From positions 1-64,000 of the forward strand of contig JAECRL010000002.1 in assembly GCA_016000265.1 (NCBI GenBank): 64,000 nt of DNA, written 5' to 3'. Below the pieces are notes generated by a model. It was given only the letters and a program-made list of their open reading frames with translations, was not told where the DNA came from and searched no databases. This DNA comes from Burkholderiales bacterium (GTDB lineage Bacteria > Pseudomonadota > Gammaproteobacteria > Burkholderiales > Burkholderiaceae_C). This document shows positions 1-13,231 of this stretch, piece by piece; positions within the stretch are counted from its first letter, which is position 1, and every line of letters begins with the position of its first letter. The translations under genes and the position numbers were made by a program.

Positions 1-819
1 GGCGGTGGCGGGGGCGGGGGTGTCGACGCCGTCTCCCGGGCTCAAGCGCGCCAGCTCGATCATCTCGACCTGCTCGGGGATGTAGCGAAAGTGCTCGGTC
101 AGGTAGGCGAAGGGCGCGTCGCAGAGCCCGACGAGGTCCAGGTTGCACTGGTAGCAGTCGGCCACCTCCAGCGCGGGCCAGGCGTGCTGCGTGCCGACGT
201 CCAGGTGCTTGAGGGCCGGGGCCTGTCGCGCCATCAGCCAGGGGTCTTCGCCCTTGAAGAAGCACTCCGGCTCCGGCCGGTAGCGCCAGGCGGTGGCTTC
301 GGGGTGGGCCAGGCGCAGCTCGGCGGGCACGCGGCTCAACCAGTCGGGGGCGGGCAAGGGGGGCGCGGCGCTGGCTTGGGTGGCCAGGGGATCGCCCGGG
401 GCGCCGCCTGCCTCGCTGGGCGGGGCCGCCGCGGTGAGTTGCGCCCGCAGGGCCGTGGCCAGGGCGTGAGAGCGCCCTTCGGCGGCGGGGTCGATGCGCC
501 CGCTTTGCTCGATTTCATCGATCATCTGGGCGGTGAAGTCCATGGCTTCCAGCAGGGCGTCGGCCATGTGGTTGCCGTAGCTCAGGGTGCCGTTGCGCAC
601 CCGGTCGAGCAGGTCTTCGCCGGCGTGCACGACGCGCTCCAGCGGCTTGAACTCGAACAGGCCGCAGTTGCCTTTGAGGGTGTGCACCTGGCGGAACAGG
701 TCGTTGAGCAGCTCCGTGTCGGTGGGGCGCTTCTCCACTTCCAGCAGGCGTCGCGACACCTGCTCCAGGCAGTCGCGGGCTTCCAGGATGAACTGGTCCA
801 GCAGCTCGGTCTGATTCAT
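1..819 (-). CDS. cheA: Chemotaxis histidine kinase CheA, N-terminal part (cut by window edge)
   Basis: Only the first 273 codons are visible and no stop occurs before the left edge. Residues 1-105 form an Hpt (P1) domain with the phospho-acceptor motif HTLKGNCGLF near residue 46. An Ala/Pro-rich linker follows (about 130-165). A second domain (about 165-255) carries the sequence CFFKGEDPW and several cysteines; it resembles the P2-like regions of CheA proteins from non-flagellar-type clusters, although this match is from memory. The dimerisation, ATPase and CheW-like domains must lie outside the window. The ATG has a GAAGGAG ribosome site and overlaps the cheY1 stop by 4 bp, so the two genes are translationally coupled. 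It should phosphorylate the CheY proteins and CheB of this operon. Confidence 0.9.
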   Translation of the reverse strand, partial: MNQTELLDQFILEARDCLEQVSRRLLEVEKRPTDTELLNDLFRQVHTLKGNCGLFEFKPLERVVHAGEDLLDRVRNGTLSYGNHMADALLEAMDFTAQMIDEIEQSGRIDPAAEGRSHALATALRAQLTAAAPPSEAGGAPGDPLATQASAAPPLPAPDWLSRVPAELRLAHPEATAWRYRPEPECFFKGEDPWLMARQAPALKHLDVGTQHAWPALEVADCYQCNLDLVGLCDAPFAYLTEHFRYIPEQVEMIELARLSPGDGVDTPAPATA

Positions 820-1232
820 GCGCGCACTCCTTCGGCGGCCTTGATGGCGGCGGGGCCGTCGCCCAGCAACAAGGCGGCGGTCAACACCAGCTCCTGGGGC
901 TTGGCGGGTTTGATCAGGTAGCAATTGGCGCCGGCCTCGAAGGCGACGCTGGTGTCGTGGCTCTGCGATTCGGTGGAGACCATCATCACCGGCGTTTGCT
1001 GGGCGCTGGCGTGGCGGCGCAGTTCGCGCACGAAGGTGTAGCCGTCCATCTTGGGCATGTTGATGTCGACCACGTAGAGGTCGAACGGCGTGTCGCTCGG
1101 CTGGTTGCCGATCTTCTCCAGGGCTTCGAGTCCGTTGATGGCTTCGTCGGTCTGCCAGCCGGCGTCGCCGAGGATCTTGCGGTGGTACATGCGCACGGTC
1201 GCGGCGTCATCGATCACGAGGATGCGGTTCAT
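816..1232 (-). CDS. cheY: CheY-like single-domain response regulator
   Basis: This 138-residue receiver-only protein has the acidic pair D8-D9, phospho-acceptor D56 in VVDINMPKMDG, the switch Ser/Thr 86-87 and K108, so it is a complete CheY-type output protein. It lies between cheR and cheA with 4-bp overlaps on both sides, and a GGAGG ribosome site sits inside the end of cheR. The C-terminus is extended by an Ala-rich tail of about 15 residues. It is one of two stand-alone receivers in the operon; the other is cheY2 at the promoter-proximal end. Whether it binds flagellar switch protein or another effector cannot be told from the sequence. Confidence 0.93.
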   Translation of the reverse strand: MNRILVIDDAATVRMYHRKILGDAGWQTDEAINGLEALEKIGNQPSDTPFDLYVVDINMPKMDGYTFVRELRRHASAQQTPVMMVSTESQSHDTSVAFEAGANCYLIKPAKPQELVLTAALLLGDGPAAIKAAEGVRA

Positions 1233-2092
1233 CGCTTGGCCTCCATGGGTTTCTCATAGACCATCGCATCGGGGAAGCGGCGGACGTCGAAGAGGGACGA
1301 GATGCGGCTCATGGACTCGGAGTGGCCCAGGCAGACGAAGCCGCCGGGTCGCAAGGCGTCGAACATGGCCTCCGCGGCGATGCGCCGCGAGATGTCGTCG
1401 AAATAGATCAGCAGGTTGCGACAGAAGATCACGTCGATGTCGCGAAAGCGCCGCGTGTCGTTGGGGTCGCTGAGGTTGACGCGGCTGAACTCGACCGCAT
1501 CGACGATGTCGCGCGACAGGGCCCAGTCGCCTTCGGCGCGCGGCTTGAAGTACTTGGCCAGGTAGGGCTTGGGCAGGTTGGCCACGGAGCGGGGCGAGTA
1601 GATGCCCCGCTGGGCCGACTGCAGCACCGCGGTGTCGATGTCGGAGGACAGGATCTCGACTTCGAATTCGTCGATGCGCGCCCAGCGCTCCAGCAGGTAG
1701 ATGGCGATGGAGTAGGGCTCTTCGCCGGTGGACGAGGGGATCGACCAGATGCGGATGCGCGAGCCCGGCTTGCGCTTCTTGACGATGTCGTCGAGCATGC
1801 TGTTGACCAGGCAGTCGAACTGGTAGGCCTCGCGAAAGAAGTAGGTCTCGTTGACCGTCATCGCGTTGACCAGGGCCTGCATCTCGGCGCCGTCGGTCTC
1901 GAAGCGCAGCTTGACGAAGTAGTCGCGGAAGTTCTCCGACGCCGTGAGCTCGATGCGCTCGATGAGGCGCTTGTCCACGAAGTAGCGCTTGGTGGTGTCG
2001 AACTGGATCCCTGTTTTTCGATAGAAGAACTCGCGGAATTTTTCGAAGTCCGCTTCGGTGATCGTGGGCTTGTCGACAGCCGCGGCTTTCAT
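1229..2092 (-). CDS. cheR: Chemoreceptor glutamate methyltransferase CheR
   Basis: This 287-residue enzyme uses S-adenosylmethionine to methylate glutamates on receptor helices. The N-terminal helical domain (about 1-80) is followed by the methyltransferase domain with SAM motif IWSIPSSTGEEPYSIA (canonical CheR has AACSTGEEP) and the later motif VIFCRNLLIYFD. The frame is open far upstream, but the true start is the ATG at 2092. That ATG overlaps the stop of the HEAT gene as ATGA, and everything before it reads as an out-of-frame HEAT sequence. No C-terminal TPR or other fusion is present. It pairs with cheB and should adapt the soluble receptors of this operon. Confidence 0.93.
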   Translation of the reverse strand: MKAAAVDKPTITEADFEKFREFFYRKTGIQFDTTKRYFVDKRLIERIELTASENFRDYFVKLRFETDGAEMQALVNAMTVNETYFFREAYQFDCLVNSMLDDIVKKRKPGSRIRIWSIPSSTGEEPYSIAIYLLERWARIDEFEVEILSSDIDTAVLQSAQRGIYSPRSVANLPKPYLAKYFKPRAEGDWALSRDIVDAVEFSRVNLSDPNDTRRFRDIDVIFCRNLLIYFDDISRRIAAEAMFDALRPGGFVCLGHSESMSRISSLFDVRRFPDAMVYEKPMEAKR

Positions 2093-2715
2093 GAGGCCTC
2101 GATTCTTTGTTGCGCCAGGTCGGCGGCGAAGCCAATGAAGGCGTCGTCGGCGAAACGCTGTCGGGCCATCTTCAACGCCGGCAGGCAGGCGTCGGTGCCG
2201 ACCTCGGCGAGCAACTCCAGGGCGGCGGCCACCACGTTGACGTGGGGCTCCTGGGTGAGCACGCTCGTCAGCCACTGGTTGACATCGGGGTGCTTGAGGT
2301 CGGTCATGAGGTTGAGGGTGAAGATGCGCACGTCGACATCGGGGTCGTTGAGCAGCGCCTGGATGTGGGGGGCGACTTCTTCGGGCAATTCGCTGAGCGC
2401 CTCGATGGCGCCGTTGCGCAACCCCGGGTCGTCGCTGCGCAGCAGGGGGATGAGGCCCTCGGCCACGTCGGGGCCGCCCAGGCAACCCAGGGTCGTGAAG
2501 ATGACTTCGCGCACGCTGTGGTCGGGCTCGTGCGCCAGGTGGGCACACAGTGGGCCCACGGCCTGGGGGTGGATGGTCAGGTCGCGCGCGGCCCAGCGAC
2601 GCACCGAGGCATCGGGGTCCTGCAGTTGCTCGATCAGGCCCTCCGTGTCGCGGGGGTACTCGCGAGGCTCGACCCGGCGCAGGCCACCGCTTTCAGTGAC
2701 TCTTCGCAATCCCAT
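2089..2715 (-). CDS. HEAT-repeat protein inside the chemosensory operon
   Basis: The 208-residue protein is built of helical PBS-lyase/HEAT-type repeats of about 31 residues. Recurring motifs such as DPDASVRRWAARDL, DHSVREVIFTTLG, DPGLRNGAIEAL and DPDVDVRIFTLNL are visible from residue 30 to about 190. There is no catalytic signature, signal peptide or membrane segment, so it is probably a scaffold or partner-binding protein. The ATG at 2715 has an AAAGGA site and lies inside cheB (23-bp overlap); the stop overlaps cheR by 4 bp. HEAT-repeat genes occur in some alternative chemosensory clusters (Myxococcus Che7 carries one), but its role here is unknown. Confidence 0.85.
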   Translation of the reverse strand: MGLRRVTESGGLRRVEPREYPRDTEGLIEQLQDPDASVRRWAARDLTIHPQAVGPLCAHLAHEPDHSVREVIFTTLGCLGGPDVAEGLIPLLRSDDPGLRNGAIEALSELPEEVAPHIQALLNDPDVDVRIFTLNLMTDLKHPDVNQWLTSVLTQEPHVNVVAAALELLAEVGTDACLPALKMARQRFADDAFIGFAADLAQQRIEAS

Positions 2716-3850
2716 GGGGGGTCCTTTCGGGGCGGTTCAACCAGCCGATCAGCTGGTTGGCGATGTCGTGGCAGGGCAGCACCACGCTGGCGCCGCCCTT
2801 TTGAATGAGTTCCTGCGGCATGCCGAAGACCACGGCGGTGGACTCGGACTCCGCGATCGTGCGCCCGCCTTGTCGCTTGAGCTGGGTCATGGCCGTGGCG
2901 CCGTCGTTGCCCATGCCGGTCAGCAGCACGCCGGTGACGCGCTCGGGGGCGAGGTGGCGCAGGGCGCTGTCGACCAGCACGTCGGCCGAGGGGTGCCAGG
3001 GGTGCCCGGGCGTTTCGGGTTTGCTCGCCACGACCAGCCGCCCCAGCCGCTCCATCACGATCACGTCCGTGCCGCCTTTGCCGATGTAGACGTGGCCGGG
3101 CTCCAGCGGCATCGGGGCGTTGACCTCGCGCACGGTCAGGGCGCACAGGCGGTCCATGCGGCGCGCGAAGGCGTCGGTGAAATTGGGGGGCATGTGCTGG
3201 GCCACGATCACCGGGCAGGGGAAATCGGCGGGCAGCTTGGGCAGGATGTCTTCCAGTGTGCGAGGCCCGCCCGTGGACACGCCGATGATGACCAGGCGCA
3301 GCTCGCTGGCCACGGACGTGCGTGACGGGGGACGCGGCTCGGCCTGGCTCGCAGCCGTGGGGGACGTGGCGCGCTGGGGGCGTTGCAGGGGGGGCTGAGG
3401 GCTGTGCTGAACGGGCCGTTGGGGCGGGCGCTGCAAGGGCCGATTCGGCGAGGCCTTGGGGCGGGCCTTCAGCGCCCCCTTGACCTTGGTGAGCAGCTGC
3501 TGCTCGATTTCATCGATGCTCAGCGAGATGGTGCCGCCCGGCTTGGTGATGAAGTCGACCGCGCCGAGCGCGAGCGCCTCGAAGGTGGCCAGCGCGCCTT
3601 CTTCGGTCAGCGACGAGACCATCACCACCGGGGTGGGGCGGGCTGCCATCATCAGGGACAAGGCCGTCAGCCCGTCCATCTGCGGCATGTTGATGTCCAG
3701 CGTGACGACATCGGGTTCCCACTGCACCAGCTTTTCCACGCCTTCGGTGCCGTTGTGGGCGATCTGGATGTCGTAGCCCGCGGCGCCCAGCACGCCCGTG
3801 ATCAGGCGGCGCATGAGGGCGGAGTCATCGACGACAAGCACCTTGGGCAT
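2693..3850 (-). CDS. cheB: Chemoreceptor methylesterase/deamidase CheB
   Basis: This 385-residue protein has the usual order: receiver domain (1-120, acidic D8-D9, phospho-acceptor D52, K103), linker, then the esterase domain (about 184-385). The catalytic triad is visible as S192 in GVSTGGP, H219 in VAQHMP and D316 in GMGNDGA. The linker (130-180) is unusually long and rich in Pro, Gln and Arg. The enzyme removes methyl groups placed by CheR and is activated by CheA phosphorylation. It lies 20 bp downstream of the triple-CheW gene and overlaps the HEAT gene by 23 bp. The start has a GGAG site. Confidence 0.95.
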   Translation of the reverse strand: MPKVLVVDDSALMRRLITGVLGAAGYDIQIAHNGTEGVEKLVQWEPDVVTLDINMPQMDGLTALSLMMAARPTPVVMVSSLTEEGALATFEALALGAVDFITKPGGTISLSIDEIEQQLLTKVKGALKARPKASPNRPLQRPPQRPVQHSPQPPLQRPQRATSPTAASQAEPRPPSRTSVASELRLVIIGVSTGGPRTLEDILPKLPADFPCPVIVAQHMPPNFTDAFARRMDRLCALTVREVNAPMPLEPGHVYIGKGGTDVIVMERLGRLVVASKPETPGHPWHPSADVLVDSALRHLAPERVTGVLLTGMGNDGATAMTQLKRQGGRTIAESESTAVVFGMPQELIQKGGASVVLPCHDIANQLIGWLNRPERTPHGIAKSH

Positions 3851-3870
3851 GTGGTGGGGCTCCGGTGGGG

Positions 3871-5532
3871 TCAGGCGGCACGGGCGAGTGCGTCGGCGGG
3901 CTCGTCGGTGGGCGAGTCGGTCAGGGCGCGGCTCATGGCCTGCATCTCGCGGCCCTGCAGCAGGTGATTGGGGTCGAGCAGCATCACCAGGCGTTGGTCG
4001 CCGTCGAGTTTGGCCACCTGGCTGATGAGTCGGCTTTGTTCGTCGGAGAGGTCGGGGGCGGCGGCGATCTGGTGGCGCGGGATGCGCAGCACCTCGGCCA
4101 CGGAGTCAACGATGAAGCCGGTGCGCAAGCCACCCAGCAGGTAGACCATGATGCGCTGGCCGTCGTTGCGCTCGATCGCGTTGAGCCCCAGCCGGGTGCG
4201 CTGGTCGATGACGGGCAGCACGGTGCCGCGCAGGTTGATGACGCCTTCGATGAAGTGCGGTGTCTTGGGCACCTTGGTCAGCACATCGGGCACGCGCACG
4301 ATCTCTTGCACGCTCATGATGGGCACGGCGAACTCTTCGGCGCCGAGGCGGAAGATCACCACCTGGGTGTCGTCGTCGTTGCTGTCGGGTTCGATCTCGG
4401 AGCGGTGGGTTGTCACGGCGGTGTTCTCCTGATGGGCCGCGTCGTGCGAGGCCATGGCCGAGAGGGCGTCGCGCATGCCCGACAGGCCCAGCAGGCGGTC
4501 GGTGGCGATGATCGAGACGAGTCGTTTGCCCTCGTCGAGGCGGCAGATGGAGGAGAACTCCTGCATCTGGCTGTCGGCGGCCAGGATGCCGGGCATGGCA
4601 TCGGCCTGGCTGCGCGGGATGCTCAGCACCTCCTTGACCGCATCCGTGACGAGGCCCACCTGGCCGCCCGCGGGCAGGGCGATGACCACGATGCGGTGGT
4701 GCTCGCTCGGGTCCTCGTCGGGCAGGCCGAACAGGCCGCGCAAGCTCACCAGCGGCAGCAGGCGCTGGCGCAGGGAGATCAGGCCCAGCACGTGGTGGGC
4801 GACGTTGGGCAGCGCGGTGATGTGCTCGGGCAGCTGCACGATTTCCTGCACGTCGGCGATGTCGATGCCGTACTCCTGGCCAGCCACGGAGAAGGAGACC
4901 AGGCGCAGCTCGTCGCTGCCGGCGTCGTCCTGCGCGTCCGCCGCGTCCGAGCCGTCTTCGCCGCTGCGTGCGCCGCGACCGTCGTCTCGGCCCAGGCGGT
5001 CGATGGCGGCGAAGTGGCTGTCGACGAGTCGGCCGAAGTCCAGCGTCATCAGCAGGTCCAGGCCGCCGTCGCTGCGCGGCCGCTTGATGACGCCCGTGAG
5101 GTAGTCGGCCGAGACGATGCTCTGGATGGCGCTGGCGGGCTCGATCTCGTGCGGCTCGACGCTGAGCACGCTGGCCACGCGGTCCACCACGAAGCCCAGG
5201 GGCTGCCCCAGGTTGATGACGACCGCGCGGGTGGCGTCGTCGTGCGCCTGCGGCTCGCATTGAAACAGCCGGCGCAGGTTGATGATGGGCAGCACCCGCC
5301 CGCGCAGGTTGGCCAGGCCGTCCAGCACGGCCGGTGCCAGCGGCAGGCGCGCCACCTCGGGCACGCGGATGATCTCTTGCACCGGCCCCATGGGCACGGC
5401 GAACATCTCGCCGGCCACCGAGAAGGTCACGAACTGGTTGTCGTGGCGGGTGAAGCCGGCGTCATCGCCGTCGTCGGTGTCGCTGCCCGCGCCAAGGGCG
5501 GCGCGCGGCGGGGTGAGGGTGGGGTCGCTCAT
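3871..5532 (-). CDS. cheW: Three-domain CheW coupling protein
   Basis: This 553-residue protein contains three successive CheW domains, at roughly 33-180, 205-350 and 388-535. Each has the hallmark pattern of a VQEI(I/V) helix followed by a glycine-rich INLR/SLRG-type loop and a VLPVI/LLPLV strand. Acidic low-complexity linkers separate them. Normal CheW is about 160 residues with one domain, so one chain supplies three receptor/kinase contact modules. The middle domain has ISLRQRLLPLV where the others have LRGRVLP or LRGTVLP, so its binding face may differ. The ATG at 5532 has an AGGAGG site. The gene lies between the tandem receptor and cheB. Confidence 0.92.
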   Translation of the reverse strand: MSDPTLTPPRAALGAGSDTDDGDDAGFTRHDNQFVTFSVAGEMFAVPMGPVQEIIRVPEVARLPLAPAVLDGLANLRGRVLPIINLRRLFQCEPQAHDDATRAVVINLGQPLGFVVDRVASVLSVEPHEIEPASAIQSIVSADYLTGVIKRPRSDGGLDLLMTLDFGRLVDSHFAAIDRLGRDDGRGARSGEDGSDAADAQDDAGSDELRLVSFSVAGQEYGIDIADVQEIVQLPEHITALPNVAHHVLGLISLRQRLLPLVSLRGLFGLPDEDPSEHHRIVVIALPAGGQVGLVTDAVKEVLSIPRSQADAMPGILAADSQMQEFSSICRLDEGKRLVSIIATDRLLGLSGMRDALSAMASHDAAHQENTAVTTHRSEIEPDSNDDDTQVVIFRLGAEEFAVPIMSVQEIVRVPDVLTKVPKTPHFIEGVINLRGTVLPVIDQRTRLGLNAIERNDGQRIMVYLLGGLRTGFIVDSVAEVLRIPRHQIAAAPDLSDEQSRLISQVAKLDGDQRLVMLLDPNHLLQGREMQAMSRALTDSPTDEPADALARAA

Positions 5533-5570
5533 GGCGCGCCTCCTGTGCGGTCAGGTCGTCTCAAAAGACA

Positions 5571-5590
5571 AGGGGCGGTCACCCGCCCCT
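5571..5590 (-). terminator. Hairpin between tandem receptor and triple-CheW genes
   Basis: Perfect 8-bp arms (5571-5578 and 5583-5590, AGGGGCGG/CCGCCCCT) enclose a 4-nt loop. On the minus strand a short T-rich run (TTGTCTTTTG) follows. It lies just after the receptor stop and before the cheW ribosome site, so it may act as a partial terminator that makes receptor mRNA more abundant than downstream che mRNA. The T-run is weak, so readthrough is expected. Confidence 0.5.
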
Positions 5591-5593
5591 GGC

Positions 5594-7519
5594 TCAGTTG
5601 CTTTGCAGCTCGTCGGCCAGCGAGGCGATTTCCTCGATGGCCGCCGACAGCTCCTCGGCGCCCTGCGACTGCTGACGGGCCGCGGCGGCGGCCTGCTCGG
5701 CGGCCTTCTCGGCTTGTTCGGCGGCCGACGACACCTGCTCCACGCCCACCTTGATCTGGGCCAGCGCGGCGGCGATTTCCTGCGCCGCCGAGACGGCCTC
5801 GCGGTTGCCCTGCTCCACCTGGGTGACGTTGCCTTCGATCTGATTGAGGTTGGCCGTGATCGAGCGGGCCTTCTCCACCTCGTTGACGGCGGTGCTCATG
5901 ATCTCGCCCAGGTCCCGGCCCACCAGCGTGATCTGGTCCTGGATGGACTTGACCATGTCCTTGATGCGATCGGCGTTCTCGGCCGAGTCGTGCGCCAGGT
6001 TGCGGATGTCCGTGGCCACGACCACGAAGCCCTTGCCGTACTCGCCGGCGCGCGCGGCCTCGATGCTGCCGTTGACGGCCAGCATGTTGGTCTGGATGGA
6101 GACCTGGGTGATGGCGTCGACGATCTTGTCGATCTTGCGGCTGACCAGCTCGAGGTCCTTGATCTGGCGCATGCTCTCGCGGGTGGCCCCCACGCCGGCG
6201 TTGATGCTGCCGATGAGCGAGTCGATGTTGCGCTTGTTGTCGTTCATCAGCTCGCGGATGACGGCGGCGCGCTCGTTGGCGTTGCTGGCGCGCTGCTCGG
6301 CGACCTGGGCGCCGTTCTCGATCTGGGTCACGGCGGCGGCGGATTCGGTGGTGGCGGCGGCCTGGCCTTGCGCGCCTTTGCGGATCTGCTCCAGCGCCAC
6401 CATGATCTGGCTGGCCGAGCGCGAGATCTCCTGCACCGCCGACGAGAGCTCTTCGGCCGAGCTGGCCACCTCTTCGGCGCTCTTGGAGATGTCGGTCGAA
6501 TTCTTCAGGTCGTCGGCCAGCTCCGACAGGCTCTGCGAGGTCTGCTCGCACTCGGCGAGGGCGACGGTCTGCTCGGCCACCGTCTTGTTGGCTTCTTCGC
6601 AAGCCGAGGACTGCTCCGCGGCGGCGGAGGCGATTTGCTCGGCGCCCTTGAGCGCCTGCTGCGCCGCGACGTTGCTTTGCGCAGCGGCCGAGGCGATCTC
6701 GGCGGCACCGGCGGCGATCTCGGCGGCGTCGTTGCGGATGCGATCGAGCTGGTCGGTGATCACGGAGCTGCGCTCGACTTCGGCCTTCACGCTCTCGGCG
6801 GCGTCGTTGATGCCGTCGGCGATGACCTTGACCTCGCCCTGGATCTGCCCGACCAGCTCCTGGATCTGCTTGGCGCTCTTCTCCGAGGTCTCGGCCAGCG
6901 TGCGCACCTCGTCGGCCACGACCGCGAAGCCCTTGCCGTGCTTGCCGGCGCGGGCGGCCTCGATGGCGGCGTTCAGCGCCAGCAGGTTGGTCTGGTCCGC
7001 GATGCGCGCCACCGCCTTGACGATGTCACCGATGTTGGCGGCCTGGCGCTCCAGCTCCCCCACCATCTTGACCGAGTCGGCCTGACGGTCCGCGGCCACC
7101 GAGACGTTGTGGATGGTGGCGCGCACCTCCTCGGTGATCACCCCGGCCAGGTTGCGCATGCCATCGGCCATGTGTTGAGCCTGGCTCACGGCGGCCAGCT
7201 GCCGGTTGATGGCCCCGCCGACCTGGTTGATGGCGGCCAGGGACTCCTGTGCGGCGCCCGAGGCCTCCTCCGCGCCGGTGGCGATCTGAGCGGCCGCGCG
7301 CTTGAGCTCCTCCGCGGCCGAGGCCGCCTCGTTGATGCCCGCCGACAGCTCGCTGGACGCCGAGGCCACGCGCTCCGACGCCTGCTGCTGCTTGGCCAGG
7401 GTGCGCGCTCGCTTGCGCTGGGCATCGGCGTCGCGCGCCACGGTGCGGCTCACGCCCGCCGGAACGGCGTGCAGGGACTGGGGCTCTTCTGCGCTGCGGG
7501 TCTTTCTGATCAGGGCCAT
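5594..7519 (-). CDS. Soluble tandem chemoreceptor with two signalling tips
   Basis: This 641-residue protein has no hydrophobic segment and no recognisable sensor domain; it is almost entirely heptad-patterned Ala/Glu/Gln-rich helix. Two complete MCP hairpin tips are visible. Tip 1 (about 170-205) reads [20 protein letters not shown]; tip 2 (about 470-505) contains [17 protein letters not shown] and then [12 protein letters not shown]. Tip 2 departs from the consensus at ALNAA (AVNGS) and ADEVR (ATDIR). Two antiparallel MCP bundles in one chain therefore lie next to a three-CheW protein. The open frame continues upstream, but the ATG at 7519 has an AAAGGA site seven bases away and the preceding residues look non-coding. 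It probably senses a cytoplasmic state or partner. Confidence 0.88.
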
Positions 7520-7655
7520 GGGGTGTCCTTTGGGGCGAGGGTCTGAAGGAGGGCGCGGGTGTGTTTCGTGTGTGGGCTCTAGCTGAACACAACTCGATTC
7601 GCGCAGGGGGCTTGGGCGGTGCGAAGAGGCCGGCCCAAGTGATAAATCTGCGAAA

Positions 7656-8780
7656 TCAGAACATTTCGATGCGGGGCACCGCGGGCGGCGCGCCCGTGGC
7701 TTGTGCACTCTGCACGCCGCCCTCGGCGGCGCCCAGCACGGCCGCGTGCGCCTCGCGCTGATCGGCCATCACGTAGGCCGTGTGCCACTGCTGCATCAGG
7801 TCCTGCAGCGCCCGCGGCGTGTGCGGGTTGAGCTGGCCTTCGGGCGATTGCGCCTGGATCGACTCGCAGTGCTGCGACAGGTCGTCCAGCGCCAGGCTGA
7901 CGCGCTCCAGCAGCTGGCGGCTGACGTCCTGAAACTGCATGTGGCCCAGCACGTCGACCAGGTCGACGCGAACGGCCCGCATGCTGTCTTCCATGTCCGT
8001 GGACAGCGCCTTGAGCTGGCAGGCCACCACGCCCGGGCGCGTGCCCATCTCGCGGATCTCGGCGCCGATCTCCGCCAGCGCACTCATGTCGACCTGGCCG
8101 GTGTCGGCCGAGCCCGCAGCCAGGCGGTGGGTGTCGGAGATGGTCTCGATCCCCTTGGCGATGTTGCGGGCCGCCTCGGCCGTCTGGTGAGACAGGCGGC
8201 GCACCTCGTCGGCCACCACCTTGAAGCCCGCCCCTTCCCGTCCGGCGCGGGCGGCCTCGATGGCCGCGTTGATGGCCAGCAGGTTGGTCTGGCGGGCGAC
8301 CTCGGCGATCAGGGCCGCCGCGGGCGTCAGCGACTGAACCTCGCTGAGCAGGCGGTTGACCATGTCGACGTGGGCCTGCTGGGCCGCCATGAACTTGCCT
8401 TCCTGCAGGCTCAGGCACTCCAGCGCGTGGCTCTGCGCCGCGGCCTGCTTGACGGTGTCGTCCGACAGGTGGCGAGATTGGTCTGCGGCCGAGCCCAGCT
8501 CCTGCTGCAGCGCGTTGCAACGCTCGTGGATGCGCTGCAGCCGCGCCACCATCTCGACGACGGCGTCCTGGCTGGAGCGGTCGGCGGCCTGCACCTGCGC
8601 GCTGAGGATCTGAAAGCACTGCTGCATCACCTGCAGCTGCGCCAGCACCGCGCGGTCGGTGGTGGCGCGAGACGGCCTCATGACGCCCTGAAACAGCGAC
8701 CTGATGCGCCCGATCCAGCCCGGTGGGCCGAACCAGGGGGACGGGGGTTGGGGCGCCAGCGAAGAGGGGGGCGTGACCAT
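7656..8780 (-). CDS. Small soluble methyl-accepting chemotaxis-type protein
   Basis: This 374-residue protein has one MCP tip near residues 155-195 ([21 protein letters not shown], then [10 protein letters not shown]) flanked by short helices. It has no membrane segment, only a proline-rich N-terminus. Downstream (about residue 283) it carries [14 protein letters not shown], a motif found at the end of a family of short cytosolic MCP-like proteins. The bundle is much shorter than in normal receptors, so it may not fit a standard hexagonal array. The start at 8780 was chosen because earlier codons overlap the end of cheY2, 7 bp upstream. A 136-bp gap separates it from the tandem receptor. Confidence 0.85.
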
Positions 8781-8787
8781 GGCGCCC

Positions 8788-9156
8788 TCACGCGGCTTGC
8801 AGGAACACCTGGCTGAGCACCTTGAGCAGCTCACCGCCACCCACCGGCTTGATCAGCCAGCCCGTGGCGCCGAACTGCCGGGCCTGATCGCGTCGGGCCT
8901 GCTGGCCGTCGGTGGTCAAGGCGAGGATGGGGGTGAAGCGCAGGGTGCGCCGGGCCTGGCGGATGAACTCGATGCCGTCCATCTTGGGCATGTGGATGTC
9001 CGTGATGATCAGGTCCGGCTTCAGCCCCGACTGCAGCAGCGACATGGCCTGTTCGCCGTCGTGCGCCACCTCGACGCGGTAGCCGCTGATTTCCAGCCCG
9101 GCCTTCATGCTCATCAGCATGGTGGTGGAGTCATCCACGAGAAGCACGGTTTTCAT
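8788..9156 (-). CDS. cheY: CheY-like response regulator, first gene of the che operon
   Basis: This 122-residue receiver-only protein has D8-D9, phospho-acceptor D53 in [12 protein letters not shown] and the conserved LIKPVGG lysine. The open frame extends 29 codons further up, but the ATG at 9156 has an AAGGAC ribosome site and begins the beta-1 strand (KTVLLVDD) directly, as CheY proteins do. It is the promoter-proximal gene, followed after 7 bp by the small MCP. With cheY1 it gives the system two competing receivers; one may be a phosphate sink, but sequence alone does not say which. Confidence 0.93.
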
Positions 9157-9426: not shown

Positions 9427-9885
9427 TCAGTTCGAGGGGGCGTCGTCCACCGCGTAGGGGTCGTCAAAACCCAGCGCGGCCAGGATCTCGCGCTCCCGCG
9501 CTTCCATGGCCTCGGCTTCCTTTTTCTTGAGGTGATCCCAGCCCTGGGCGTGCAAGGTGCCGTGCACCAGCATGTGGGCGTAATGGGCCTCCAGCGTCTT
9601 GCCCTGCTCCTGCGCTTCCCGCTCGATCACGGGGGCGCAGAGGATCAGGTCGGCCATCACCACGGGCTCTTGGGCGTAGTCGAAGGTCAGCACGTTGGTG
9701 GCGTAATCCTTCTTGCGGAAGTCGCGGTTGAGGGCCTGCCCCTCTTCGGCGTCCACCAGGCGCACGGCGATCTCGGCGTCGGCCTCGAGCGTGGCCTTGA
9801 TCCAGCGCGCCACCTTGTGACGCGGCAGGGTGTCGCGGTGGCTTTTGTCGGCGAACTGCAGGCTCAGGGAGAGGGTGGGCTTCAT
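9427..9885 (-). CDS. ybeY: Endoribonuclease YbeY (rRNA maturation factor)
   Basis: This 152-residue zinc-dependent RNase matures the 16S rRNA 3' end and takes part in ribosome quality control. The UPF0054 signature is visible in the C-terminal half as [11 protein letters not shown] (H-x3-H-x5-H), giving the three zinc histidines. The conserved core [18 protein letters not shown] lies near residues 53-70. Length matches the family. It overlaps the upstream ybeZ gene by 4 bp (ATGA), the usual ybeZ-ybeY arrangement. Confidence 0.96.
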
Positions 9886-10967
9886 GCGGATTTCTTGCGG
9901 GCGGCGTGGGGGGCGGGTTGGGGGGCTTGCGGGTGGGTGGGCTCGCTGGCCTGATCGGCGTCGTAGGCCGCCACGATGCGCGCGACCAGGGGGTGGCGCA
10001 CCACGTCGGTGGTCGTGAAGCGCGTGAAGGCCACGCCCTTGACGCGCTTGAGGATGCGCTCGGCCTCGATCAGCCCGCTCTTGCTGCCGCGCGGCAGGTC
10101 GATCTGGCTGACGTCCCCCGTGACCACCGCGCGCGAGCCGAAGCCGATGCGGGTGAGGAACATCTTCATCTGCTCGGGCGTGGTGTTCTGCGCCTCGTCC
10201 AGGATGATGAAGGCGTGGTTGAGCGTGCGCCCGCGCATGAAGGCCAGCGGCGCGATCTCGATGAGGCCTTTCTCGAAGGCCTTGGTGACGCGGTCGAAGC
10301 CCATGAGGTCGTAGAGCGCGTCGTAGAGCGGGCGCAGGTAGGGGTCGACCTTTTGCGTGAGGTCGCCGGGCAGGAAGCCCAGGCGCTCGCCGGCCTCCAC
10401 CGCGGGGCGCGTCAGGATGATGCGCTGCACGGTGCTGCGCTCCAGAGCGTCGACGGCGCAGGCCACGGCCAGGAAGGTCTTGCCCGTGCCCGCCGGCCCG
10501 ATGCCCAGCGTCAGGTCGTTGCCCAGGATCTGCTGCAGGTACTGGACCTGGTTGGGCGTGCGGCCTTGCAGGTCGGCGCGGCGGGTGTGCAGCGTGGGGC
10601 CCTGGGCGGCGGCGGCCTCGTCCTCATCGAGCGCCAGCGCCGCCGCCTCGCCGCGGGCCGTGCGGCGGCGCGCGGGCGAGGCCGCGCCGCTCACACCGCT
10701 TCCGGCGGCGTCGCGCTGTGCCGAAACCACCGCCAGCTGCACCACCTCGGCGCTCAGGGGGCGGTCGCTGCGGGCATAGAGGGTGTCGAGCAGGTCGGCG
10801 ACCTGTTGCGGCACGCCGCGCGCGCCTTCGATGCGGAATCGCTCGCCGCGGCGGTGCACGGTGACGTGAAATGCCGCTTCGATGGTGCGCAGGTGCTCGT
10901 CCAGCGGGCCGCACAGGTGCGCCAGCCGGGAGTTGTCTGCAGGAGAAAGGCTGTGGCGGAGTTGCAT
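9882..10967 (-). CDS. ybeZ: PhoH-family ATPase YbeZ
   Basis: This 361-residue PhoH-like NTPase has Walker A GPAGTGKT near residue 155 and Walker B IILDEAQN near 255, with a KH-like N-terminal region (1-90). An Ala/Glu-rich insertion lies near 105-135. It is the genetic and probable physical partner of YbeY in rRNA processing. The frame is open for another 97 codons upstream, but these would code an Arg/His repeat that is the reverse of the GCCGAT repeat in the divergent kinase gene. The ATG at 10967 (MQLRHSLS) is therefore preferred. The C-terminus is Pro/His-rich. Confidence 0.94.
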
Positions 10968-11086
10968 GGGGGCCCGAAGCGTTCTGAAAGGCTGCACAAA
11001 TTGTCGCTTGTCCGGGGACCGCGGGCGTGACTTCTCTTGCGAAAATGCGCTGCTGATGGTGCGCGCAACCTGCGCGAGCCGGGCTT

Positions 11087-13231
11087 GTGGAGTCCTCCTT
11101 GAACTTGACGAATCTCTGGCGGTCGCTGCGCGGGCGCCTCCTTCCGCGGGAACAAGCCGCCGCGGAGCCCCCCCTGGTCGCCGATGCCGATGCCGATGCC
11201 GATGCCGGCGCCGGCGCCGGCGCCGGCGCCGACGTGAGCGCCGACATGTCTTCGGCATCCCACGCCCCCGGCATGCTGCGGCTGTGGATCGTGCTCGGCC
11301 TGACGCTGGCCCTGGTGGTGGCCCTGGCCCTGGTGGCCATCAACCGCGAGGCCTCGCGCCTGAGCCAGCCCGGCGCCCGCCAGGTGCTGGGCGGCGCGCT
11401 GCAGTCCCTGCCCCAGGCCTGGGCCGTGCGAGACGGCGGCGCGCACTACCCCGTGGGCGTGCCGGGCAGCCTCGTCACCCTGCCCGATGAGTGGTCCCGC
11501 TCTCAGCCCGGTCACAAGGGCTCGGTCTGGTATCGCTTTCATTTCGACCTGGCCTCGGTGCCGCGCGCCGGCGAGGTGCTGGGGGCGCTCATCGACCGCG
11601 CCTGCTCCAGCGTCGAGGTCCACCTCAATGGCGTGCTGCTGTTTCGCAGCGGCCGCATGAGCGACCCCTTTGCCCGCCAGTGCTTCAGCACCCACGTGGT
11701 GCCCCTGACGGCGACCCTGCTGCGCGAGCGCGACAACATGCTGGACGTGCGCGTGGCCGGCTACCCCATCGGCCACGTCAGCTCGCGCCAGCGCGCCGGG
11801 GGGCTGTCGTCGGTGCAGGTCGGCCCGCTCGCCGAGGTGCAGGAAGCCGCCGAGATCCAGACCTTCTGGACGCTGACGCTGTCGCAGATCCTGGGCGGCG
11901 TGCTCATCGTCATGGGCGTGTTCGCCCTCGGCCTGGCCTGGGTGCGCAAGCTCAACTACCTGCTTTACTTCGGCCTGCTGACCATCGGCTGGGCGGTCAT
12001 GACCGGGCGCTTCTGGCGCGGCGACCTGCCGGTGCCCAACGACGCCATGGAGGTCTTCATCGCCATCATGATGGCGCCGATGACCGCGTTTGCCGTGAAG
12101 TTCCTGCTGGGCTACGCCGGCACCGGGCTGCGCCACGGCGGCCAGCGCATCTGGCTGGAGCGCATCAACCTGGTGCTGTGGGCGCAGTGCCTGCTGCTGC
12201 CGCTGAGCCTGCTGCTGCTGGGCGACTCGGGCATCTTCCTGGGCTCGCGCCTGTGGTTCGTGCTGTTCACGCTGGAGCTGTTCCTGGCCATCGGCTACTT
12301 CCTGTGGCTGGCCGCGCGCGCGCGCCGCGCCGAGTTCTGGATGATGAGCGCGGCCCTGGGTGTGGTGGCGGCGGTGCTGGGCATCGAGCTGTCGTATCAG
12401 AACGGCCTCTTGCAAAGCGGCGGCCTGCACATCACCCACTTCGTGATGCCGCTGCTGTACGCGGCCGTGGGCGTGCGCCTGATCCAGGTCTACGTGCGCG
12501 CGCTGCAGTCTGCCGAAGGCGCGCGCCTGCACCTGGAGCGCCGCGTGCAGGAGATCAGCGTCGAGATCGAGCGCAACTTCAACCAGATCGCGGAGCTGCG
12601 CGTCGAGCAGATCGCCGAGCGCGAGCGCAAGCGCATCGCCGGGGACCTGCACGACGACCTGGGCGCCAAGCTGCTGACCATCGTGCACACCTCCGACAAC
12701 GACCGCATCTCCAGCCTGGCGCGCGAGGCGCTGGAAGAGATGCGCCTGTCGGTGCGGGGCCTCACGGGCCGCCCGATGGTGCTGTCGGACTCCCTGGCCG
12801 ACTGGCGCAGCGAGGTGGTCTCCCGCCTGGGGCAAGCCGGCATCGAGTGCGAATGGCACAACCCCAACGACATCATCGAAGAGCCCCTGTCGTCGCGCAC
12901 CTACGTTCAGACCACGCGCATCGTGCGCGAGGCGGTCAGCAACATCATCAAGCACAGCGGGGCGTCGCACGTGGTCATCTCGGCCGGGGTCGACCTGGAG
13001 AACCACGTCTTCACGCTGGCCATCAAGGACAACGGCAAAGGCATCCCCATGGAGCTCGACGGCCGGCTGGACCGCGGCCATGGCATGACGAGCATGAAGC
13101 ACCGCGCCAAGCAGCTCAGCGGGCAGTGCCTGGTCGAGTCCGGGCCGGGCTTCGGCACCGTCATCCGCCTGACGCTGCCGCTGGAAATCGCCGCGATGCA
13201 ACAGGTTTTACCGGGCCGCCCTGCGTCTTGA
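11087..13231 (+). CDS. 7TM-DISM type sensor histidine kinase
   Basis: The protein has about 714 residues. After a cytoplasmic N-terminus come a first membrane helix (about 64-86), a periplasmic all-beta domain of the 7TMR-DISMED2 type (90-255), seven membrane helices (265-465), a coiled coil, and a HisKA_3/NarL-type kinase core. The phospho-accepting His is H522 in [16 protein letters not shown]. The N box is [11 protein letters not shown] and the G box DNGKGIPM. The start is uncertain: GTG at 11087, or TTG at 11099, which has GGAG just upstream. Its partner is the LuxR-type regulator 88 bp downstream. The N-terminus carries an in-frame hexanucleotide repeat (separate entry). The ligand is unknown. 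Confidence 0.88.
11180..11233 (+). repeat. Hexanucleotide tandem repeat in kinase N-terminus
   Basis: Nine consecutive 6-bp units lie here: four GCCGAT, four GCCGGC and one GCCGAC. They code alternating Ala-Asp then Ala-Gly dipeptides just before the first membrane helix. Slippage would add or remove two residues without shifting the frame. Confidence 0.95.

What the first reader, a model, noticed from the sequence alone, without database searches (positions are those of the whole stretch)
1..9156. Self-contained cytosolic chemosensory operon with multiplied modules
Nine adjacent genes encode two CheY, two soluble MCP-type proteins, a triple CheW, CheB, a HEAT protein, CheR and CheA, and none has a membrane segment. 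Receptor tips are doubled in one chain and CheW domains tripled in another. This suggests an array whose geometry is built by covalent linkage rather than by free CheW rings. The HEAT protein is an unassigned member. Gene overlaps and ribosome sites show tight co-expression. The signal and output are unknown.
Basis: partly seen in the sequence, partly recalled or inferred. Interest (0 to 1): 0.85.

Follow-up and report, generated by a model that had tools for sequence, protein, structure and literature searches.

The report
F9 cytosolic array operon, phosphatase-like receptors
This gene cluster is a member of a known class of bacterial signalling arrays that float inside the cell (class F9), and its small receptors seem to carry a built-in switch-off site for their partner messenger protein, something that could be tested directly in the test tube.

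Summary
The nine genes are as described, but the system is known: a double-tipped receptor (DosM) plus a triple CheW marks chemosensory class F9, which forms double-layered cytoplasmic arrays in Vibrio cholerae. The window cuts the cluster: the rest of CheA starts contig C2, followed by a small STAS-like gene, a second CheY and a second short receptor, which has a hydrophobic anchor. "No membrane segment" therefore holds for the window only. HEAT is a regular member, fused to CheR in one genome.

The new part is the short receptors beside CheY. In 18 aligned modules the only invariant residues are Q, QD and Q of Q[FY]QDxxxQ and a terminal F; this is the CheZ active-site signature. 28 of 30 module genes adjoin a receiver-only gene, against 2 of 77 ordinary receptors. 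Of 23 F9 clusters 15 have the module, 7 CheC, 1 neither, none both. I propose that these, and McpA-like receptors of F7 clusters, are receptor–CheY-phosphatase hybrids. Similarity to CheZ rests on the motif alone, so they are not shown to be CheZ family members.

The parts
8788..9156 (-). CheY1, receiver-only response regulator paired with the short receptor
   Evidence: Pfam Response_reg E 1e-25; 63% to the CheY on contig C2
7656..8780 (-). Short soluble MCP (374 aa) with one receptor tip and a CheZ-like C-terminal module
   Evidence: Pfam MCPsignal E 6e-23; no TM, KD max 1.19
7914..7937 (-). Codons of Q282-F-Q-D285-x-x-x-Q289, the CheZ-type active-site motif in the short MCP
   Evidence: Invariant columns in A1; in A5 Q, Q, D and Q invariant, F nearly so
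7659..7670 (-). Conserved C-terminal tail IEMF of the short MCP
   Evidence: Terminal F invariant in 18 modules
5594..7519 (-). DosM: receptor with two signalling tips, 641 aa
   Evidence: Two MCPsignal stretches; tips 300 residues apart
6830..7009 (-). DosM tip 1 region
5930..6109 (-). DosM tip 2 region ([21 protein letters not shown])
3871..5532 (-). CheW3, three CheW domains at 5017-5436, 4489-4902 and 3952-4365
   Evidence: Pfam CheW, three stretches, E 2e-98; for domain places
2693..3850 (-). CheB methylesterase with receiver
   Evidence: Pfam CheB_methylest E 6e-57
2089..2715 (-). HEAT-repeat protein of the F9 cluster, proposed partner of CheR
   Evidence: Pfam HEAT_2 E 8e-26; HEAT-CheR fusion in L070
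1229..2092 (-). CheR methyltransferase
   Evidence: Pfam CheR E 7e-54
816..1232 (-). CheY2, receiver-only response regulator next to CheA
   Evidence: Pfam Response_reg E 2e-26
1..819 (-). CheA, N-terminal 273 aa only (Hpt and linker); the rest is on contig C2 (L031 1-1362)
   Evidence: Hpt E 1e-13; both fragments align to one CheA of Sphaerotilus and of Eleftheria; kinase domains on C2

Best explanation
Shown: this is a full chemosensory cluster of class F9 (DosM, CheW3, CheB, HEAT, CheR, CheY2, CheA, STAS-like) flanked on both sides by a CheY1-plus-short-receptor pair. One receptor is soluble (window), one has a hydrophobic anchor (contig C2). Inferred from V. cholerae: DosM spans two CheA/CheW3 baseplates in a double-layered cytoplasmic array, with short receptors joining the trimers as input. 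Proposed: HEAT serves CheR, for example by bringing it to receptors. The C-terminal helix of the short receptors, 110-117 residues beyond the tip, carries an Asp-x3-Gln site that takes the phosphate off the neighbouring CheY1, so input and switch-off of one output sit in one molecule. The same would hold for McpA-like receptors of F7 clusters. Catalysis and the output of CheY1 are not shown.
For: F9 signature: two tips and three CheW domains; definition in PMC9321776 section 8. Core gene order the same in 7 of 7 plasmid clusters read. Phosphatase: Q, Q, D and Q of Q[FY]QDxxxQ and the terminal F are the only invariant columns of 18 modules; this is the AXXFQ-DXXXQ signature of CheZ (abstract and passages). 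The module profile finds stand-alone proteins, and 7 of 21 CheZ at E<0.01, ahead of any motif-less MCP (best 0.041) among 5,224 ORFs; on reversed ORFs it finds none at E<0.01. F9 and F7-type modules match each other by profile (hhalign probability 95.5%). 28 of 30 module genes adjoin a receiver-only gene, against 2 of 77 generic MCPs (Fisher p 4e-21). Module and CheC never occur together in 23 clusters: 15 module, 7 CheC, 1 neither (P 3e-5 if independent); three of these CheC proteins were scanned and match Pfam CheX and/or CheC. A stand-alone module sits beside CheY in an F9 cluster (L074). HEAT-CheR fusion.
Against: Similarity to CheZ is the motif only: with the motif columns masked, 0 of 21 CheZ are found at E<0.01 (best 0.91). 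Profile-profile comparison with CheZ (probability 7.5%) is within the range of 40 random sets of ordinary MCP C-termini (up to 32%). A direct Pfam scan of 8 module proteins listed no CheZ; the weak Pfam and NCBIfam CheZ scores lie far below cut-off. My own CheZ profile ranks a motif-less MCP (E 0.23) just above the window copy (0.25), and gives two hits at E<0.01 on reversed ORFs, so its weak scores mean little. The CheY-binding tail of CheZ (VDDLLSSLGF) is absent. The receptor model was too poor to judge the site (pLDDT 49.9). Adjacency to CheY may partly reflect lying in a che cluster. In the Methylosinus cluster the module receptor has no receiver-only neighbour, only an annotated response-regulator transcription factor. 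One F9 cluster (L075) has neither module nor CheC.
Confidence: 0.6

Rival explanations
1. The conserved C-terminal module of the short receptors only docks CheY (or CheR) at the array and does not catalyse dephosphorylation. The Asp and Gln are contact residues.
For: The tail [IV]E[LM]F ends in F like the CheR pentapeptide (recalled). The module shows no likeness to CheZ beyond the motif. McpA C-termini are conserved but of unknown role (PMC7184735 section 11).
Against: Stand-alone modules without receptor helices keep a similar tail (L033, L074, L120, L136), so it is unlikely to be a tether for receptor methylation. The Asp-x3-Gln pair is just the catalytic pair of CheZ. Exchange with CheC fits a phosphatase better.
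Confidence: 0.28
2. One reading: a new, purely cytosolic system whose array geometry is set by covalently linked CheW and receptor units.
For: Two tips and three CheW domains are real. DosM tip spacing is fixed.
Against: Published as class F9. The second receptor of the cluster has a hydrophobic anchor. CheW3 linkers have low predicted confidence.
Confidence: 0.05
3. The CheY-plus-short-receptor pairs belong to the flagellar system and only travel with the F9 cluster. The receptor then switches off the flagellar CheY.
For: McpA-like receptors were reported to associate with F6 arrays (PMC7184735 section 11). The genome has a CheZ on C15 with a CheY-like gene beside it (CheZ by Pfam; CheY read by eye).
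Against: The adjacent CheY1 is the natural partner, and a true CheZ with its own neighbour already exists.
Confidence: 0.07

Closest known systems
F9 chemosensory class, Vibrio cholerae cluster I (DosM VC1403, CheW3 VC1402, CheA VC1397)
   Same: Double-tipped receptor, triple CheW and CheA in one cluster, with a short receptor encoded in it (VC1394)
   Different: Here the CheY-receptor pair is present twice, once soluble and once with a hydrophobic anchor, on both sides of the core. V. cholerae sequences were not compared here.
F9 cluster on Sphaerotilus sulfidivorans plasmid pSna507_unt10 (L156) and Eleftheria terrae plasmid unnamed2 (L155)
   Same: Same core order DosM-CheW3-CheB-HEAT-CheR-CheY-CheA-small gene; CheW3 64% and 67% identical
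   Different: There the short receptor lies only downstream of CheA; here an extra pair lies upstream of DosM.
McpA-like/CttP receptors of F7 clusters
   Same: Short receptor next to cheY with a conserved C-terminus; the F7-like clusters L216 and L217 and the C5 cluster of this genome have QFQDRVxQ and end in FF
   Different: Tail TFF instead of ELF; part of F7-like clusters, not F9. P. aeruginosa McpA itself was not in the data, and the F7 label of these clusters rests on gene content, not on a CheA tree.
CheZ
   Same: FQDxxxQ active-site signature, gene next to a cheY
   Different: No detectable similarity outside the motif; carried on a receptor; no VDDLLSSLGF tail.
Haloarchaeal HEAT_PBS chemotaxis protein OE2401F
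   Same: A HEAT-repeat protein in a che region (passages of PMC2666748)
   Different: Reported to interact with CheD and the DUF439 protein OE2402F; homology beyond HEAT repeats was not tested here.

Membership tests
F9 chemosensory class | DosM: receptor with two signalling domains in tandem, no sensor domain | tested here: met
   Two MCPsignal stretches in 641 aa, no sensory domain listed; two tips 300 residues apart
F9 chemosensory class | CheW with three concatenated CheW domains | tested here: met
F9 chemosensory class | Full gene set with cheA, cheB, cheR, cheY in the cluster | tested here: met
   CheA split over two contigs
F9 chemosensory class | CheA phylogeny placing it in F9 | not tested
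   No CheA tree was made
F9 chemosensory class | 44H receptor class | not tested
   Heptads were not counted
F9 chemosensory class | Double-layered cytoplasmic array | not testable with these tools
   Needs electron cryotomography
CheZ family | DXXXQ active site | tested here: met
   [FY]QDxxxQ in all 16 F9 modules, YQD in one (Eleftheria)
CheZ family | AXXFQ upstream of the active site | tested here: inconclusive
   The FQ part is kept; the Ala is His in the window copy and varies among the others
CheZ family | Score above the curated cut-off of Pfam PF04344 or NCBIfam NF041271 | tested here: not met
   13.2 bits against 30.7; 14.4 against 350; not listed at all in the direct Pfam scan
CheZ family | Homology beyond the motif | tested here: not met
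   Masked profile finds 0 of 21 CheZ at E<0.01; hhalign not above null
CheZ family | C-terminal CheY-binding helix VDDLLSSLGF | tested here: not met
   Modules end in IELF-like tails
CheZ family | CheY~P phosphatase activity | not testable with these tools
   Needs biochemistry
McpA-like / VC1394-like short receptors | Transmembrane region plus short signalling domain beside an F7 or F9 cluster | tested here: inconclusive
   C2 copy has a hydrophobic segment, window copy none; VC1394 and CttP sequences were not compared

The most novel reading that the evidence does not exclude
The short receptors encoded beside cheY in F9 and F7 chemosensory clusters are receptor-phosphatase hybrids: one chain plugs into the array through its tip and dephosphorylates its own CheY through a CheZ-like Asp-x3-Gln site, and stand-alone versions of the module (about 150-220 aa) are a second, unrecognised kind of CheZ. 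This would explain why McpA-like receptors are dispensable for the F7 array, why their C-terminus is so conserved, and why F7 and F9 clusters can lack cheZ.
Probability: 0.58. Interest if true: 0.72.

Novelty: new variant of a known kind. Interest (0 to 1): 0.55.

Why it matters
The physiological roles of the F9 and F7 systems of V. cholerae are called unclear, and McpA-like and VC1394-like receptors are described in print as outliers whose role is unclear (PMC7184735 section 11; PMC7534058 passages and section 8.1). A phosphatase site on the receptor gives these receptors a concrete biochemical job, names the CheY they act on (the adjacent gene), and can be tested with two purified proteins. 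It would also be a new way to wire a chemosensory array: the receptor could set the lifetime of CheY~P directly, besides setting kinase activity.

Tried and rejected
Novel system: rejected; it is class F9. CheZ homology of the whole domain: not supported (hhalign no better than random sets of MCP C-termini; masked profile). Structure of the short receptor: model too poor (pLDDT 49.9), so no fold search was run. HEAT as a query for named genomes: alignment too divergent. Viral contigs with CheW3: none. VC1394-like protein L071 against plasmids: none at E 1e-12. Paper searches for a receptor with a CheZ-like site showed no such report in their listings; the library holds open-licence papers only.

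Limits of the counts. Of 26 F9 clusters, three were left out of the module/CheC count (L037 contig end, L040 core absent, L073 3.2-kb contig); L070 was fetched but not counted (no DosM or CheW3 in the 18 kb read). Among the 23, L039 and L069 lack the upstream end of the cluster and L160 starts at the end of its record, so a gene beyond those ends could be missed. The profile that scored the module was built from those same sequences, so their positives are circular; the zeros in CheC clusters are not. The 30 loci are those returned for higher-scoring matches (75 of 150 genomes matched; E 1e-4); they include F9 loci used to build the profile and one of this genome; weaker matches were not examined, and the picker required a motif-bearing ORF. 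The 18 modules of A5 include four (L032, L033, L152, L185) chosen partly by motif or CheZ score. Three DosM homologues (L041, L043, L044) did not show both tips by the pattern used and are not in the spacing count.
Full report
The observation. The nine genes exist at the stated place, all on the minus strand, with clear Pfam matches. The window begins at the end of contig C18 of a 3.56-Mb genome. CheA is therefore cut: 273 residues with the Hpt domain are in the window. Contig C2 opens with a 453-residue frame holding the CheA dimerisation, ATPase and CheW domains. The two fragments align to different parts of one CheA of Sphaerotilus (1-257 and 344-804 of 804) and of Eleftheria (1-269 and 325-756 of 756), so the break lies in the variable linker. 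No exact overlap of the contig ends was found, so the adjacency of the two contigs is inferred.

The full cluster. On C2 CheA is followed by a 77-residue protein (L031 1362-1592), a CheY (63% to CheY1) and a second short receptor of 441 residues. The 77-residue protein itself has no Pfam match; two of the three homologues scanned match STAS_2 below cut-off. The second receptor has a hydrophobic segment (KD 2.06) where the window copy has none (1.19). It is closer to the receptor of the Sphaerotilus plasmid (50.5%) than to the window copy (41%), so the copy beside CheA is the positional counterpart and the window pair is the extra one.

What it is. Two tips in one receptor and three CheW domains in one protein are given in print as the unusual architectures unique to class F9 (PMC9321776, section 8 read). 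That section reports full F9 clusters in 64 of 2,781 species. In V. cholerae the class forms double-layered cytoplasmic arrays: two baseplates of CheA and a concatenated triple CheW, spanned by DosM, with other receptors needed (PMC7534058, passages and section 8.1). I collected 26 F9 clusters, some of them fragments: the window with C2, 10 from the order search, 8 from the phylum and genome-contig searches, 7 from plasmids. The 7 plasmid clusters are those I read of 24 plasmid records with a CheW3 match; in all 7 the annotated core order is DosM, CheW3, CheB, HEAT, CheR, CheY, CheA, small hypothetical. The distance between the two DosM tips is exactly 300 residues in 14 of 15 proteins where both were located (Azospirillum B510 gives 304).

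HEAT. The HEAT gene lies between cheB and cheR. In one genome (L070 8142-9611) HEAT and CheR are one protein, confirmed by Pfam, though the 18 kb read there showed no DosM or CheW3. Microvirga (L077) showed no HEAT hit and has CheB directly followed by CheR. I infer that HEAT serves CheR; nothing more is shown.

The short receptors. Beside CheY1 sits a short receptor with one tip. In an alignment of eight, the only block invariant outside the tip is QFQDxxxQ, with a few single residues (V252, G315, Y336, H345, F374). In 18 modules, with stand-alone and F7-type ones added, the only invariant columns are Q, Q, D and Q of Q[FY]QDxxxQ and the last residue, F. CheZ has AXXFQ next to its catalytic DXXXQ (PMC7750401, abstract and passages). 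The distance from tip to the Asp is 110-117 residues in all 16 receptors where a tip was located, and 111 in two F7-type receptors from plasmids. NCBIfam's CheZ model hits the C2 copy at E 9.5e-5, the window copy at 0.02 and L035 at 0.031, far under its cut-off, and does not list L032 or L033. A direct Pfam scan of 8 module proteins lists no CheZ; the whole-genome scan with the Pfam CheZ model gave the window copy 13.2 bits against a cut-off of 30.7.

Controls. A profile of 16 F9 modules, built without CheZ, was run over 5,224 ORFs. Behind the module family itself it finds CheZ proteins (7 of 21 at E<0.01, best 1.5e-4) before any MCP lacking the motif (best 0.041); on reversed ORFs it finds nothing at E<0.01 (best 0.027). 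The reverse search is weak: my CheZ profile gives L185 8e-6 and the Eleftheria receptor 0.017, but a motif-less MCP (0.23) ranks just above the window copy (0.25), and two reversed ORFs score below 0.01. With the motif columns masked the module profile finds no CheZ at E<0.01 (best 0.91), and profile-profile comparison with CheZ is not above random MCP sets. So the likeness is the active-site motif, not the domain. It works like CheZ, if at all; it is not shown to be a CheZ.

Genomic association. 28 of 30 module genes have a receiver-only gene next to them on the same strand within 400 bp, against 2 of 77 ordinary MCPs (p 4e-21). One of those two (L136) is followed by a stand-alone module (QFYDRLVQ, tail SVELF). 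In this genome the window receptor, the C2 receptor, the C5 receptor, the 169-residue C6 protein and the true CheZ on C15 each adjoin a cheY (the C15 CheY was read by eye). An exception is the Methylosinus cluster, where the receptor's neighbour is annotated as a response-regulator transcription factor. Among 23 F9 clusters, 15 have the module, 7 have CheC, one (L075) has neither and none has both (3e-5 if independent, which related clusters are not). CheC lies beside a response regulator in six of the seven, and one PAS gene away in A. thermophilum. Two A. brasilense CheC proteins and the L043 one were scanned and match Pfam CheX and/or CheC; CheC is called a CheY-P phosphatase in PMC2666748 (passages). 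One F9 cluster (L074) has the module as a stand-alone 157-residue protein next to CheY.

Link to F7. The C5 cluster of this genome and the F7-like plasmid clusters of Aeromonas sp. BC14 and Pseudomonas sp. HR96 have the same receptor-CheY pair, with QFQDRVxQ and an FF tail, followed in the plasmids by STAS and CheA. The F9 and these other modules match each other by profile (probability 95.5%). PMC7184735 (section 11 read; [quoted passage not shown] A phosphatase on the receptor would account for all of this. I did not have the sequences of VC1394 or P. aeruginosa McpA; the link to them is by description and position.

Mechanism proposed. CheA in the double-layered array phosphorylates CheY1 and CheY2. 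Short receptors plug into the baseplate by their tip. Their Asp-x3-Gln site, 110-117 residues (about 16-17 nm of helix, by arithmetic) away, dephosphorylates CheY1. Having a soluble and an anchored copy would allow both cytosolic and membrane-side input. Shown: genes, motif, association. Inferred: array, catalysis, partner choice. Unknown: signal and output.

Models. AlphaFold for the short receptor was poor (pLDDT 49.9). For CheW3 (pLDDT 66) three CheW folds are joined by low-confidence linkers.

Noticed in passing
window 7502-7519 and 2698-2715; L035-L044, L071, L072, L155-L161: Many DosM and HEAT proteins of F9 clusters share a short N-terminal peptide (such as MALVKK). It may vary together: MALKK in DosM and MGLKK in HEAT of L071 and L072; the M. 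currus HEAT lacks it. Perhaps a common binding tag.
   Followed up: partly
DosM of the window and 14 relatives: Tip-to-tip distance is exactly 300 residues in 14 of 15 DosM proteins where both tips were located, like a molecular ruler. A continuous helix of that length would be about 45 nm by arithmetic, longer than the published 35-nm array height.
   Followed up: no
window 5571-5590, minus strand: A terminator-like hairpin (8 pairs) lies directly after the dosM stop codon, between dosM and cheW3; it could set a higher level of DosM than of the rest.
   Followed up: no
L157 17445-18296, L158 17520-18281: Methylosinus and Methylobacterium plasmid F9 clusters encode a ParA-family protein right after the small STAS-like gene, which suggests active positioning of the cytosolic array.
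   Followed up: no
L120 11635-12087, L131 8906-9577, L136 11015-11584, L033 6172-6681: Stand-alone proteins of 150-223 aa with QF[QHY]DxxxQ and a tail such as GSVELF. In two of four a receiver-only gene adjoins (L033, L136), in L131 a longer receiver protein, in L120 none within 500 bp. A possible second kind of CheZ.
   Followed up: partly
L070 8142-9611: HEAT-CheR fusion protein in a stretch without DosM or CheW3, beside a hybrid histidine kinase and a PAS receptor.
   Followed up: partly
window 9430-11258; L031 3381-8489: The cluster lies beside ybeY and phoH, so it is probably chromosomal here, while close relatives are on plasmids. None of the 8 same-family genomes listed has the HEAT marker, which suggests horizontal gain or frequent loss.
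   Followed up: partly
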